64,000 nucleotides of DNA from Bolinopsis microptera (lineage: Eukaryota > Ctenophora > Tentaculata > Lobata > Bolinopsidae), in contig NC_087078.1 in the NCBI RefSeq assembly GCF_026151205.1, forward strand, positions 1,629,675 through 1,693,674, given 5' to 3'. Position 1 is the first letter of the stretch. The number at the start of each line of letters is the position of its first letter. Below the pieces are notes generated by a model. The model searched no databases. It had not been told where the DNA came from and saw only the letters and a program-made list of their open reading frames with translations. This document shows positions 18 through 56,300 of this stretch, one piece after another. Position numbers and translations under genes: made by a program.

Positions 18-15777
<15,760 letters not shown>

Positions 15778-17009: not shown

Positions 17010-17167
17010 TTATAGTCTCTCCTCTATCACTTGACTCACTGTAATGTAGGTCGCCTCCTCTCCATCCTGTCCTGTACCTTCAACACCATTATTCCTATTT
17101 TGAGCTGCATTCCTAAACGTCACCACATCATCTCCTCTCTCATTCCTCACAAAAGTTACGTCAGTCT
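17010..17167 (-). pseudogene. Partial copy of the receptor tail exon
   Basis: The minus-strand reading TDVTFVRNERGDDVV... to ...EEATYITVSQVIEERL and stop parallels the last 50 residues of the receptor encoded upstream (VSFVRNRRGDDVV... to ...EEATYITINQLVEDKL). The reading frame and stop are intact despite clear divergence. Similarity ends sharply at about 17167. It could be a relic of a tandem gene duplicate or an alternative terminal exon. Confidence 0.7.
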
Positions 17168-17322: not shown

Positions 17323-19872
17323 TTAAAGTTTATCCTCTACCAGTTGATTGATTGTAATGTAGGTCGCCTCCTCTCCACCCTGTTCCGGTTCTCCAACACC
17401 ATCATCTCCACCCTGACATGGGTTCCTGTAGCTCACCACATCATCTCCTCTTCTGTTCCTTACAAAGGACACGTCAGCGTATGTTGGTTCTTCCTCATTT
17501 TTAGGATTGCGTGTGTTGTTTACAAAATCTATGTCAGCATACGTTCCCTCTTCCTCAATTTTAACACTGTGTTGTTCCTTAGATTTTCCTCCGTGTCTGT
17601 TCTTAACGAACGTTACATCAGCATATGTGTCTCCTTCCTCATTGCTGAGATTGTGGGGTTCTTTAGATATTTGTCCAGGTCTGTCCAGGCGCGCATAAAG
17701 GCCTTCATTGTCATCAGTCGAGGGTCCAGGCTCATTTGATTGGATTTGGTTTTGGTCAGGATGAATCTGGGGCTGCCTATTTTGCCTCCTGTTCTGACCT
17801 TCTCTATCAATCCGGTTATAAACCCCTTCTGTGTCTTCTAAGGCGTGGACAGGCTGTGCGTTTACTGTTGTGGGGAAAGCAGGTTGCTTGTTGACATTGG
17901 CATAGACTGGTTCTTGGTCTTGGTCCCTGTTACTGTGGTCGACTTCTCCTCCTTCAGATATAATATCTTCTTTTTTCTTTCCGTCTCTTCGTAATTTGAT
18001 AATAACGGCAGTTACCAGTAGAAGCAGCAACAGCCCGCCTCCACCTGCCCCAGCTATCAAAGGAGTACTGTTTCTCCCAATACTTTCACTTCCTTGTTCT
18101 GGTTTCCTGCATTGGTTTGCAATACTTGTTGTGTTGTCAGTACAGTCCTTGCTCCCATCTTTTAAGCACTTGTAATGCTCAATATCTGGCTTGCAATATA
18201 TTCCACAATAATCTCCGAAATAATCTTTTCTTCTGCATTCGTCGCAATTCTGTCCTATCTTACTGTTTTCACACTCATCATCCATTCTTCCCCAATTTGC
18301 AGACCTTCTCTCCATTGTCCGGATCACAAGTGTAGTTTCCCTGTACTTCTTGACAGTAGATATTGCATTCCTGAGCAGGGTAATAGTCCGCCTCACATTT
18401 CTTCTCTCCAGTATTCTGGTCACAGGTGTAGTTTCCCTGTGATTCATTACAGTGCACAGAGCAATCTTCTCCAAAATGGTTTTCGATGCACTTATCACAA
18501 TTTCTTCCTTCTTTGTTGATATTCTGGCACTCATCACAGTCTTGTCCCTTCTTGCCCTCCACACAGATCCTCTCTCCTGTTGTCTGGTTACACGTATAGT
18601 TACCTGTAACCGGTTTACAGTGTGTGTTACATATCTGTTGAGGGTAGTAATGTTCTTTACAGTCTTTATCTCCTGATCCATCACATGTATAGCTAGTTCT
18701 ATTATTAGTAGTTTCCTGGCAGAATTTTGAGCAAGTCTCTCCAAAATAGTTGTCGATGCACTTTTCACAGTTAAATCCTACTTTGTTTCTGTTTTGACAC
18801 TCATCACAGCCTTCTCCTTCCTTTCCCTCCAGACAGATCTTCTCTCCTGTAGTATTATTACATGTGTAGTTACCTGTCACTGGTACACAGCGTGTGTCAC
18901 ATATTTGTGGTGGATAGAAGTGTTCCTTACAGTCTTTCTCTCCTGATTCATCACAAGTGTAGCTAGACGTCTCATGGCAGGTCTTGGAACAATCTTCTCC
19001 ATAGTGGTTTGCGACACAGTCCTCGCAGTCAGATCCAGTCCTGTATTGCAGACACTGTTTATCCCCTTCATAGGTACAAATGTATCTTTCAGGGTTTGGG
19101 ATGCAGAGGATGTTACATGATTCTGCCGGGTAGTAATTCTGAACACATCTCTCACAATTGTTTCCCTCGAAATGGTCTACACAGTCATCGCATTCAATTC
19201 CCGCTCTATTTCCTGCACAAACCTTGCTTCCTGTCGTAGGATGACACGTGTAGTGACCTGACACAGGTTTACAGTATTTACCACACTCTGTTCCGTAGTA
19301 GTTAGCTACGCAGGAGTTACAGCCTAATCCAGTGAAGTGGCTATCGCAGCTCAATAACTTATATTTTATCTTAAGAGTTGCTTGTTTTTCGTCACCCTCA
19401 GCGTTATTGTCACTTACAAAGGATTTCCACCACCAGGGTCCACCTGATCTAATGCCTGAAAATGGTACCACCAGACCCGACATTGTTCTTTCATAATCAT
19501 CATTACCCGTGTCTTCATCCCATACTTCAAATGATATTTTTATACTCCTACCAGCGTTGATCTTTACTGGAATAGCATCCTTGAGCTGCTCCAGGTTAGA
19601 GAAATAGACAGTATCAGTGTTACCGGTGTCATCTGTTTCTATTACGTTGAGAAATTCGTTACCTTCTTCTTCCTGGATCACAAAGTTCTTAAAGTAAAAG
19701 TCACACACGTCTCCGCAGTTTGTAGAGTCTTTATACTTGTAAAGTTTTATCTCCCCTTTTCCACTGCAGTCTATATTCTCCTGGTTGGGTAACAAATAAT
19801 AGTATAGTGTTCTCTGTATATTACCGTTAACAGAAGTAGTTGTAAAACAAGAAACACAAGTTTAAATTTCAT
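17323..19872 (-). CDS. Notch-ligand-like transmembrane receptor with DSL array and Y-x-x-[VIL] tail; frameshift
   Basis: Signal peptide exon 19825-19872 (MKFKLVFLVLQLLLLT), a 44-base intron, then one long exon. Order: a Notch-ligand N-terminal-like module (SGKGEIKLYKYKD... WWWKSF), then about nine DSL-like cysteine modules alternating between Y-[YF]-G-x2-C and Y-Y-P-x3-C types, each with NYTC or similar. A helix (STPLIAGAGGGGLLLLLLV) and stop-transfer KLRRDGKKK follow. The tail has seven Y-x-x-[VIL] motifs: YANV, YNRI, YARL, YADV, YADI, YADV, YITI. Such motifs recruit SH2 proteins when phosphorylated. The frame shifts by +1 near 18280, between GEKVCKLGKNG and DDECENSKIG. One extra base would explain it, as error, polymorphism or pseudogene. 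Classical Delta/Jagged proteins have one DSL followed by EGF repeats and a different tail, so this looks like a signalling receptor rather than a Notch ligand. The role is inferred only. Confidence 0.82.
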
Positions 19873-53300: not shown

Positions 53301-56300
53301 AAAATTTAAATCATAAACTTGTGGCTCCAAGCTAAAATGGAACAACCCTGTCTGATTGTTATTGTCCATCCTCCACCTAAACCATCAAACTAACACTAAA
53401 AATCTCTCGTCAATACTTATTAATCCAATATTTATTATTACATTAAAATTCCTGTTTCATTAATCACGATCACTTCAATCACATTCTGACTTTCGCTCTC
53501 AGTGCTATCTGACTTGCTGACAGCGTTATCCTCCTCGTGGTCAGACTCAGCTGTGCCCACCGCCACACCTGACAATGCTTAATTTTAACAAACTGGTGTT
53601 TAATCTTTCTAGCAATCAAGTTAATTAATATACTACTTTATTTATCTAGGCTGAGTTCTTCATCTCATCAGTACTTGCTAACCAGATCTATGCTGAAACT
53701 ATGTCAAGTAGACATGGTTGCATTATTCCTAATTGTTCTTGATAAGGGTTGCCTCCTTCTCATTCCTCCTAAGTCCTCCTCCTGAGTCCTCCCCCTCTTC
53801 CTCCTGAGTCCTCCTCCTGGTTCATCCTCCTCCTAGTTCCTCCACCTTCTCCTTCTCCTCCTCAGTCATTCTCCTCCTCCTCCTCCTCAGTCATCCTCTT
53901 CAGTACTCCTCAGTCCTCCTCCTTCTCAGTCCTCCTCCTTCTCAGTCCTCCTCAGTCCTCTTCCTGAGTTCTCCTCCTCCTCCTCCTCCTCAGTCCTCCT
54001 TCTGGGTCCTCCTCCTCCTAGGTCCTCCCCCTCCTCCTCCTATTCACTCCTCAGTTTTCCTGAGTCCTCCTCCTGAGTCCTCCTCCTGGGTCCTCCTCCT
54101 CCTAGGTCCTCCTCCTTCTCCTCCTCAGTCCTTCTCCTCCTCCTCCTCAGTCCTCCTCCTCCTCCCTCTCAGTCATCCTCCTCAGCCATCCTCCTCAGTC
54201 CTCCTCCTCCTCAGTCCTCATCCTCATCGTCCTCTTCAGTCCTCCTCCTCCTGGGTCCTCTTCCTCCTCTTCATCCTCCTCTTCCTCCTCAGTCCTCAGT
54301 CCTCAGTCCTCCTCCTCATCCTTCTCGTCAGTCCTCCTCCTCCTCAGTCCTCCCCAGTCCCCCTCCTCCTCCTATTCAGTCCTCCTCCTCCTCCTCAGTT
54401 CTCCTCAGTCCTCCTCCTTCTCATTCCTCCTAAGTCCTCCTCCTGAGTCCTCCTCCTCTTCCTCCTGAGTCCTCCTCCTGGTTCATCCTCCTCCTAGTTC
54501 CTCCACCTTCTCCTTCTCCTCCTCAGTCATTCTCCTCCTCCTCCTCCTCAGTCATCCTCTTCAGTACTCCTCAGTCCTCCTCCTTCTCAGTCCTCCTCAG
54601 TCCTCTTCCTGAGTTCTCCTCCTCCTTCTCCTCCTCAGTCCTCCTTCTGGGTCCTCCTCCTCCTAGGTCCTCCCCCTCCTCCTCCTATTCACTCCTCAGT
54701 TTTCCTGAGTCCTCCTCCTGAGTCCTCCTCCTGAGTCCTCCTCCTGGGTCCTCCTCCTCCTAGGTCCTCCTCCTTCTCCTCCTCAGTCCTTCTCCTCCTC
54801 CTCCTCAGTCCTCCTCCTCCTCCCTCTCAGTCATCTTCCTCAGCCATCCTCCTCAGTCCTCCTCCTCCTCCTCAGTCCTCATCCTCATCGTCCTCTTCAG
54901 TCCTCCTCCTCCTGGGTCCTCTTCCTCCTCTTCATCCTCCTCCTCTTCCTCCTCAGTCCTCAGTCCTCAGTCCTCCTCCTCATCCTTCTCGTCAGTCCTC
55001 CTCCTCCTCAGTCCTCCCCAGTCCCCCTCCTCCTATTCAGTCCTCCTCCTCCTCCTCAGTTCTCCTCAGTCCTCCTCCTTCTCATTCCTCCTAAGTCCTC
55101 CTCCTGAGTCCTCCTCCTCTTCCTCCTGAGTCTTCCTCCTGGTTCATCCTCCTCCTAGTTCCTCCACCTTCTCCTTCTCCTCCTCAGTCCTTCTCCTCCT
55201 CAGTCCTTCTCCTCCTCCTCCTCCTCCTCAGTCATCCTCTTCAGTACTCCTGAGTCCTCCTCCTTCTCAGTCCTTTTCCTGAGTTCTCCTCCTCCTCCTC
55301 CTGAGTCCTCCTTCTGGGTCCTCCTCCTAGGTCCTCCTCCTTCTCCTCCTCAGTCCTACTCCTCCTCCGCAGTCCTCTTCCTCTTCCTCCTCCTCCTCCT
55401 CCCTCTCAGTCATCCTCCTCAGCCATCCTCCTCAGCCATCCTCCTCAGTACTCCTCAGTCCTCCTCCTTCTCAGTCCTCCTCAGTCCTCTTCCTGAGTTC
55501 TCATCCTCCTCCTTCTCCTCCTGAGTCCTCCTCCTGGGTCATCCTCCTCCTAGATCCTCCTCCTTCTCCAATCATACATCTACGTCTCCAGTGTCTCCAA
55601 TGTCTCCAATGTCTCCAAAAGCTTTGTCTCCAATGTCTCCAATGTCCCCAATGTCTCCAATGTCTCCAAAAGCTGTGTCTCCAATGTCTCCAATGTCTCC
55701 AGGACATGTCTCTGCACCCTATCTTTTCAAAAAAGACAAAAGACATTGGAGACATTGGAGACATGTCACCCCCCCCCCCCCCTATAATATATAATAAAGG
55801 CATGGCACATGGGCGATAGTTAAACTTTGAACTTACTTTTACAGTAAATCTCGTCGTCGTGTTCAAGGACTTCCCCGGGGGTCATGGTCTTGCTGCATGC
55901 CTTACATTTGACACAAGGCTTGTGGAAAACCTGAAAATGAGGTAGTGACTGCAACTGTGAGGACAGAGGTTCAGAACGATTAGATGGAACCAGCCTCCGG
56001 GTCGTTCAATTGTTACGTACATCAGCTGCACTTGGTTCATTAAGTGTAAATAGTTTTGCAGCCGAACGAATCGGTCTTACCTAAACCTTAACCTAACTCA
56101 AACTGGAACCCTAATATAATAATACATAACACATAAGACCAAAGCTTACCAATACCATTAAATAGCCCTATCAGTAACTTTACACGATCGAATTTTCGCT
56201 TAATATACTAGCCTTTCTATTCGTGTCACAACTCACATGATAGAAACGGTTTTTGCCCAAAACTCCTTATATTTCTAATTATTACTATTATAGGGGTGAA

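What the first reader, a model, noticed from the sequence alone, without database searches (positions are those of the whole stretch)
17323..19872. Receptor joining a Notch-ligand N-terminus, a DSL array and a seven-tyrosine tail
Seen: an N-terminal module and first Cys module like Delta/Jagged, then about eight more DSL-like modules instead of EGF repeats, one TM helix, and YANV, YNRI, YARL, YADV, YADI, YADV, YITI in the tail. Known: Notch ligands have one DSL and no such tail; repeated Y-x-x-[VIL] motifs are typical of SH2-phosphatase or kinase-coupled immune receptors. Inference: a ligand-like ectodomain was recast as a phosphotyrosine-signalling receptor, possibly for cell recognition or immunity.
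Basis: partly seen in the sequence, partly recalled or inferred. Interest (0 to 1): 0.8.

Follow-up and report, generated by a model that had tools for sequence, protein, structure and literature searches.

The report
Notch-ligand-like receptors with phosphotyrosine tails
What is very probably a comb jelly genome carries a multi-copy family of cell-surface receptors whose outer part is built from Notch-ligand modules and whose inner tail carries a row of tyrosine motifs; the copy in this window is a member whose reading frame is broken in the assembly.

Summary
As assembled they are not one reading frame: ectodomain and tail are split by a frame break at 18280, and the first intron is 44 nt where paralogs have 216-229. 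This copy is damaged or mis-assembled. The architecture is not an accident. In the same genome (very probably the ctenophore Bolinopsis microptera) 34 loci or fragments match the N-module, and 12 of 23 full-length copies examined hold N-module, DSL modules, TM and tyrosine tail in one open frame. Six more have a different TM/tyrosine tail on an adjacent exon. The predicted N-module/DSL fold has Jagged-1/-2 as best matches. N-module dN/dS lies near 1, tails lower (0.35-0.53), with wide intervals. The motif is not a canonical ITIM (0 of 7; family 9 of 109). An SHP2-like phosphatase gene and a Src-like kinase gene are present. Best reading: a lineage-expanded recognition-receptor family signalling through SH2 proteins; function is inferred. 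Precedents: multi-DSL genes in Nematostella, a DSL receptor kinase in Capsaspora.

The parts
19825..19872 (-). exon 1: start codon and signal peptide MKFKLVFLVLQLLLLT
   Evidence: Translation; exon, upstream DNA and GTAA donor conserved in three paralogs, 87-91% DNA identity, and more weakly (72-73%) twice in L013
19781..19824 (-). putative 44-nt intron (GTAATA...CAACCAG); 216-229 nt in the three paralogs
   Evidence: Donor and acceptor conserved in L001 (two genes) and L002; frame-compatible join
19310..19774 (-). N-module: C2/MNNL-type domain ending CDSHFTGLGCNSC
   Evidence: AF2 model pLDDT 91.1; Foldseek ranks 1-7 Jagged-1/-2; 22-member alignment A1
18299..19285 (-). array of eight DSL cores in frame A (19285-19217, 19117-19052, 18991-18929, 18901-18833, 18733-18659, 18631-18563, 18463-18395, 18367-18299)
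   Evidence: Cys pattern scan; Pfam DSL 1.5e-28 with 8 stretches; 270-bp internal tandem duplication 18459-18966
18278..18282 (-). frame break: frame A stop TGA at 18280-18278, tail frame resumes at 18282 (8 nt shorter than paralog L006 here)
18142..18207 (-). ninth DSL core, in the tail frame
   Evidence: weak Pfam DSL, 13.4 bits, below the cut-off
17998..18060 (-). transmembrane helix LIAGAGGGGLLLLLLVTAVII
   Evidence: Translation; hydrophobic helices at the same place in paralogs
17326..17997 (-). cytoplasmic tail, 224 aa, with YANV 17904, YNRI 17820, YARL 17697, YADV 17625, YADI 17541, YADV 17481, YITI 17361 (coordinate of the first base of each Tyr codon)
   Evidence: nine-tail alignment with the last two motifs kept in 9 of 9
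17013..17165 (-). remnant of a second tail end (last 51 aa) and 3' flank of an L001-type gene
   Evidence: C7:1646687-1646839, 57% identity to tail residues 225-275; 91% DNA identity to L001 7051-7304

Best explanation
The window holds a damaged (or mis-assembled) member of a lineage-expanded family of type I cell-surface receptors. Shown: ectodomain of signal peptide, Notch-ligand-type C2 N-module and DSL modules; then one TM helix; then a tail of repeated [VTLI]-Y-[SA]-x-[VIL] motifs; tandem and dispersed copies; two tail types, one in frame with the ectodomain and one on an adjacent exon; an SHP2-like and a Src-like gene in the genome. Inferred: the C2 module (with the DSL stalk) binds something on another cell or microbe; clustering lets a Src-type kinase phosphorylate the tail tyrosines; SH2 proteins (SHP2-like phosphatase, adaptors) dock and set the outcome; different tails give copies different outputs, as in paired receptors. 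As assembled, the window copy would encode only a truncated ectodomain without TM or tail.
For: Family and architecture: 34 N-module loci or fragments, 20 on C7 (union); 12 of 23 full-length copies examined are one open frame from N-module to tail; 6 more have the second tail type downstream. Fold: pLDDT 91.1, Jagged ranks 1-7; DLL1 Z 9.3, Drosophila C2-DSL-EGF1 Z 9.2, DLL4 Z 9.1. Tail: 7 of 8 Tyr in motifs; 109 Yxx[VIL] motifs in 19 tails; TM-plus-tail dN/dS 0.35-0.53 in 4 pairs; last two motifs in 9 of 9 tails. N-module dN/dS 0.72-2.54 in 10 chosen pairs, median 0.86 over the 24 closest pairs with differences. SH2 toolkit: 33 SH2 hits; SHP2-like locus with two SH2 pieces and PTP exons; Src-like kinase.
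Against: The window copy has a frame break and a very short intron; no transcript data. N-module dN/dS intervals are wide and only one of 10 pairs excludes 1; over 24 pairs the range is 0.55-2.54. Pooled N-module against tail gives p 0.014 with that extreme pair, 0.034 with a sister pair in its place, 0.060 without either, 0.12 on matched pairs. Gene conversion and relaxed constraint can mimic diversification. Motifs fail the canonical ITIM and ITAM definitions. YxxΦ is also an endocytic signal (recalled). No other species could be searched. The Jagged superpositions have low TM-scores (0.28-0.32) over the whole model, and C2 Z-scores do not separate ligand C2 from other C2 domains.
Confidence: 0.53

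Rival explanations
1. They are atypical Notch ligands. The tail YxxΦ repeats are AP-2 endocytosis signals that supply the pulling force for Notch activation, not SH2 sites.
For: C2 plus DSL order and fold like Jagged/Delta; a Notch-like gene with EGF and LNR repeats exists in the genome (L028); YxxΦ fits AP-2 signals (recalled).
Against: No EGF-repeat stretch after the DSL; eight DSL stretches in the window ORF and 1 to 12 in five paralogs scanned. Dozens of loci is unlike a developmental ligand. Up to 10 motifs per tail, mostly V/T/L at Y-1 and S/A at Y+1, is more than an endocytic signal needs.
Confidence: 0.2
2. They are phagocytic or scavenger receptors like MEGF10/Draper/SCARF, with a Cys-rich stalk and tail tyrosines that call a Syk/Src engulfment pathway.
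For: SCARF1 appears weakly in sequence searches (E 0.02; E 0.088); Cys-rich repeated ectodomain plus tyrosine tail.
Against: No EMI match in the Pfam scans; DSL in 21 of 21; no ITAM spacing (20-41 residues between window motifs).
Confidence: 0.15
3. The window locus itself is a pseudogene with no product, a recombined leftover of the expansion.
For: Frame break at 18280, intron cut to 44 nt and a leftover tail end downstream; other decayed copies exist.
Against: No other stop in about 820 codons from 19780 to 17326; one assembly allele only, so an assembly error or a polymorphic allele is not excluded.
Confidence: 0.55
4. Two unrelated neighbouring genes (an ectodomain gene and a tail gene) were joined by eye.
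For: Different frames in this copy.
Against: 12 of 23 examined copies carry the same order in one open frame.
Confidence: 0.02

Closest known systems
Delta/Jagged Notch ligands
   Same: N-terminal C2 (MNNL) module followed by DSL; type I TM protein; Foldseek best hits
   Different: DSL arrays instead of EGF repeats; multi-tyrosine tail; Pfam MNNL not hit; dozens of loci
Nematostella multi-DSL genes (Gazave et al. 2009, PMC2770060, passages seen)
   Same: Genes of 1-11 DSL repeats and one MNLL with 3 DSL
   Different: The passages seen mention no tyrosine tail or expanded receptor family and leave misassembly open; another phylum
Capsaspora Delta-like receptor tyrosine kinase with two DSL domains (cited in PMC4810162, passages seen)
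   Same: DSL ectodomain coupled to tyrosine phosphorylation
   Different: Has its own kinase and EGF repeats; here docking-type motifs only, and a C2 module
Botryllus fester co-receptors and Hydractinia Alr (PMC12065747, abstract and passages seen)
   Same: Clustered recognition receptors whose tails carry ITIM, hemITAM or 'core' Y-x-x-I/L/V motifs
   Different: Fester co-receptors have Ig and sushi ectodomains, not C2/DSL; here mostly non-canonical core-type motifs, many per tail
MEGF10/Draper/SCARF scavenger receptors (recalled)
   Same: Cys-rich ectodomain, single TM, tail tyrosines
   Different: EMI/EGF modules rather than C2/DSL; ITAM/NPxY-type tail signals

Membership tests
Notch ligand (Delta/Jagged) | N-terminal C2 (MNNL) module | tested here: met
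   By fold together with the DSL: Foldseek ranks 1-7 Jagged. By profile only weak: Jagged-1 E 0.15 and DLL1 E 0.21 rank first, an unrelated odorant-binding protein follows at 0.38. Pfam MNNL: no hit
Notch ligand (Delta/Jagged) | DSL domain directly after the N-module | tested here: met
   Pfam DSL in 21 of 21 members, best 1.7e-13; window member 3.9e-07 at residues 155-196, right behind the N-module
Notch ligand (Delta/Jagged) | tandem EGF repeats after a single DSL | tested here: not met
   Nine DSL cores; in the whole frame A ORF no EGF-type Pfam family above its cut-off (EGF_laminin 15.1 bits, cut-off 21)
Notch ligand (Delta/Jagged) | binds and activates Notch | not testable with these tools
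   A Notch-like gene exists (L028)
ITIM receptor | [SIVLT]xYxx[LVI] in tail | tested here: not met
   0 of 7 in the window (motifs); 9 of 109 in 19 tails
ITIM receptor | SHP-type tandem SH2 phosphatase available | tested here: met
   C8 locus: C-SH2 best PDB match PTPN11 E 6e-20; second SH2 piece and PTP exons by eye
ITIM receptor | tyrosines phosphorylated and bound by SHP | not testable with these tools
   Needs phosphoproteomics or pull-down
ITAM receptor | two YxxL/I 6-12 residues apart | tested here: not met
   Window motif spacings 28, 41, 24, 28, 20, 40; other tails not measured
Laminin/EGF protein | modules are ordinary laminin EGF, no DSL similarity | tested here: not met
   Whole frame A ORF: DSL 99.2 bits against EGF_laminin 15.1. 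In the 255-aa N-terminal piece EGF_laminin reaches 21.1 (cut-off 21) and in paralog L009 it outscores DSL (32.6 against 24.9)
MEGF10/Draper | EMI domain plus EGF repeats | tested here: inconclusive
   No EMI match in the Pfam scans; a missing match is weak evidence in so diverged a lineage

The most novel reading that the evidence does not exclude
Ctenophores run a recognition system (microbial or allogeneic) built from Notch-ligand modules: a clustered, diversifying family of C2-DSL receptors with exchangeable phosphotyrosine tails read by SHP2- and Src-type proteins. [quoted passage not shown]
Probability: 0.33. Interest if true: 0.88.

Novelty: new variant of a known kind. Interest (0 to 1): 0.68.

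Why it matters
[quoted passage not shown] A ctenophore family doing this with Notch-ligand modules would extend that pattern to the lineage proposed as sister to all other animals. It also bears on the history of Delta: a 2016 review states that Mnemiopsis has no diagnostic Delta domains and that it had no information on ctenophore Notch and Delta architecture (PMC4810162, passages), whereas this genome has many C2-DSL genes. The test is direct, because paralogs with open frames and a candidate SHP2 are now located.

Tried and rejected
Intron rescue of the frame break: 266 GT-AG joins of up to 400 nt enumerated, the 12 best by a simple score printed. The best (18603 to 18213, donor GTAACT) would remove two DSL cores and part of a third, and its donor lies in a codon run that recurs as coding sequence in the array; not accepted, not disproved. 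MNNL Pfam search of the genome: nothing, but its control also rang nowhere, so it proves no absence. COX1 for naming the organism: no match. The organism was inferred from a published table; the scaffold count differs (232 here, 346 there). Model of the later DSL modules: failed, pLDDT 33.2 with 6 sequences, not used. L027 (LNR hit) looks like GNPTAB, not Notch, by eye. L024 SH2 ranks Syk and SHP2 close together, unresolved. L026 is SH2B-like. Canonical single-DSL Delta: candidates at C3:8854857 (L029) and C3:3.446/3.452 Mb (L030, with sushi-like exons, by eye); no EGF-like motif and no N-module in those stretches, unresolved. L019 showed no tail among the frames printed; not searched further. 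Literature: nine searches listed no title or abstract start on DSL arrays with tyrosine tails; the library lacks most subscription papers and preprints.

Full report
What is in the window. Pfam finds DSL with E 1.5e-28 and eight stretches. Seven of the eight tail tyrosines are Yxx[VILM]; composition shuffles average 1.16 and none of 5000 reaches seven.

The copy is not intact. Frame A ends at TGA 18280 and the tail frame resumes at 18282. Against the paralog in L006 the window lacks 8 bases here. Of 266 GT-AG joins enumerated, the 12 best were printed and none is convincing. The signal exon, its GTAA donor and the acceptor before ENIDC are conserved in three paralogs (two genes in L001, one in L002); from those alignments their intron is 216, 222 and 229 nt, the window's 44 nt. 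Just downstream, 17165-17013, is the end of another tail with an L001-type 3' flank. Whether this is a pseudogene, an allele or an assembly fault cannot be told here.

The genome. G000 has 264.65 Mb in 232 contigs; C1 is 26.2 Mb, C11 20.8 Mb, C13 16.4 Mb; the window's GC averages 38% over the 32 rows. PMC11797021 Table 1 (passages) gives Bolinopsis microptera 265 Mb, 13 chromosomes, largest 26.2 Mb, N50 20.8 Mb, GC 38.5%. The scaffold count differs (346 against 232). I take it as very probably this ctenophore; no marker gene was compared.

The family. Two N-module searches together list 34 loci, fragments and decayed copies included, 20 of them on C7. I fetched 20 stretches plus the window and examined 23 full-length N-modules. 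Twelve sit in a single open frame with DSL modules, TM and tyrosine tail (L001 twice, L002, L005 twice, L006, L009, L014, L015, L016 twice, L020; the L005 gene at 2-2830 is cut at the stretch edge, L009 carries the second tail type in the same frame, and L015 has YKEV and two YVPM only). Six have an ectodomain exon followed downstream by a TM/tail piece of the second type, YDNV/YNDV/YDYV-like (L006, L007, L008, L010, L011, L013; two of these pieces carry a stop); splice-like donor and acceptor sequences are visible in L006, L007 and L011. The other five are the window, L003 (frame break or intron), L013 (broken frame), L014 (an in-frame stop) and L019 (no tail seen). Pfam DSL in other copies: 5 stretches in L001 (2.1e-18), 12 in L005 (1.3e-73), 6 in L014, 1 each in L009 and L016. 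The window's own array holds a 270-bp tandem duplication, so arrays can grow by duplication.

The N-module. An alignment of 21 members gave a confident model (mean pLDDT 91.1; two of the five models were lower, 78.8 and 75.6). Foldseek against the PDB ranks Jagged-1 and Jagged-2 C2-DSL-EGF structures 1 to 7, E 5e-11 to 4e-10, but whole-length TM-scores are low (0.28-0.32 by query length) with rmsd of 10-15 A, as for a jointed chain. VIA-align shows that the C2 part alone is tied with many C2 domains (Z 10.1 to 8.8; DLL1 9.3, Drosophila C2-DSL-EGF1 9.2, DLL4 9.1), so the ligand assignment rests on C2 and DSL together. A profile of the N-module alone ranks Jagged-1 and DLL1 first, at E 0.15 and 0.21, with an odorant-binding protein next at 0.38. 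Pfam MNNL does not hit.

The tail. Over 19 tails, 109 Yxx[VIL] motifs mostly show V/T/L at Y-1 (80 of 109) and S/A at Y+1 (76 of 109); the canonical ITIM residue at Y-2 occurs in 9 of 109, and in 0 of 7 in the window. Motif spacing in the window is 20-41, so no ITAM. The last two motifs are kept in 9 of 9 aligned tails. Shuffle tests on the other tails are mixed: most are enriched, but L002 5215-6204 (P 0.58), L004 (0.15) and L009 (0.11) are not.

Rates. NG86 dN/dS for TM plus tail is 0.35-0.53 in four pairs, for the DSL array 0.21-0.75 in five, for the N-module 0.72-2.54 in ten chosen pairs; over the 24 closest N-module pairs with differences the range is 0.55-2.54, median 0.86. Only one of the ten intervals excludes 1. 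Pooled counts from five N-module pairs against two tail pairs and three DSL pairs give Fisher p 0.014 and 0.0002; matched pairs alone give 0.12 and 0.025. I had included the extreme pair L005-L010; with L005-L003 in its place p is 0.034 and 0.001, without either 0.060 and 0.0035. N-module loops vary more than strands and helices (0.32 against 0.21). This fits diversification of the outer module but also relaxed constraint; gene conversion is likely, since dS differs between modules of one pair.

The signalling toolkit. 33 SH2 hits. One locus on C8 carries an SH2 whose best PDB match is the SHP2 C-terminal SH2 (E 6e-20), a second SH2 piece upstream and phosphatase exons with YIATQG, WPDHG and HCSAG (by eye). 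A Src-like kinase with two SH2 exons lies on contig C102 (by eye). Csk-, Crk- and Abl-like SH2 pieces were recognised by eye only. A Notch-like gene with EGF and LNR repeats exists (L028).

How it most likely works. Shown: modules, order, family, tail motif conservation, toolkit. Inferred: ligand binding by the C2/DSL ectodomain, phosphorylation of the tail by a Src-type kinase, docking of SH2 proteins, and different outputs from different tails. The strongest rival is that these are odd Notch ligands with endocytic YxxΦ signals.

Comparison. Gazave et al. (PMC2770060, passages) reported Nematostella genes of 1-11 DSL repeats and one MNLL plus 3 DSL, possibly misassembled. PMC4810162 (passages) cites a Capsaspora receptor kinase with two DSL domains, and says Mnemiopsis lacks diagnostic Delta domains while Pleurobrachia has a Delta. 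PMC6040629 (passages) puts MNNL plus DSL back to choanoflagellates. PMC12065747 (abstract and passages) describes Botryllus fester co-receptors and Hydractinia Alr receptors with ITIM/ITAM-type motifs and, in Botryllus, a 'core' Y-x-x-I/L/V motif of unknown function, the closest match to this tail. The ctenophore immune survey PMC11797021 (abstract and passages) treats TIR, NACHT, SRCR and CTLD genes and has no occurrence of Notch, DSL or tyrosine in its main text. The nine paper searches listed no title or abstract start describing this architecture. I therefore call it a new variant of a known kind: a tyrosine-motif recognition-type receptor with an unusual ectodomain.

Noticed in passing
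window 12653-13513 (-): Secreted-looking protein ([15 protein letters not shown] start) of about six repeats with [EH][TES]ADPHTWxDNxxC; only sub-threshold Pfam hits.
   Followed up: partly
window 53764-55569: 1.8-kb degenerate TCC-rich tandem array, GC 0.55 with strong strand skew; similar poly-S/L/P frames lie in L029.
   Followed up: no
window 8870-10933 (+): 687-aa open frame without a Pfam match at E up to 0.01.
   Followed up: no
G000:C7:1726506-1734595: Four DSL/tail fragments at a constant spacing of 2425 bp with equal scores: a tandem array of a decayed receptor piece.
   Followed up: no
L012 (G000:C7:8693000-8696500): Tail copy in two pieces, 77% (with two stops) and 83% identical to the window's tail; the window tail's nearest relative in the search.
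   Followed up: partly
L021 (G000:C102): Src-like kinase with two adjacent SH2 exons; a like SH2 pair is on contig C107.
   Followed up: partly
L015 and L019 (C3 and C11): Two distant loci with N-modules that show no difference (dN and dS zero): a very recent interchromosomal copy or an assembly duplicate.
   Followed up: no
L031 (C1:4.42 Mb), L018 (C11:3.93 Mb): Multi-exon-looking DSL-array genes, possibly an intron-bearing form of the family.
   Followed up: no
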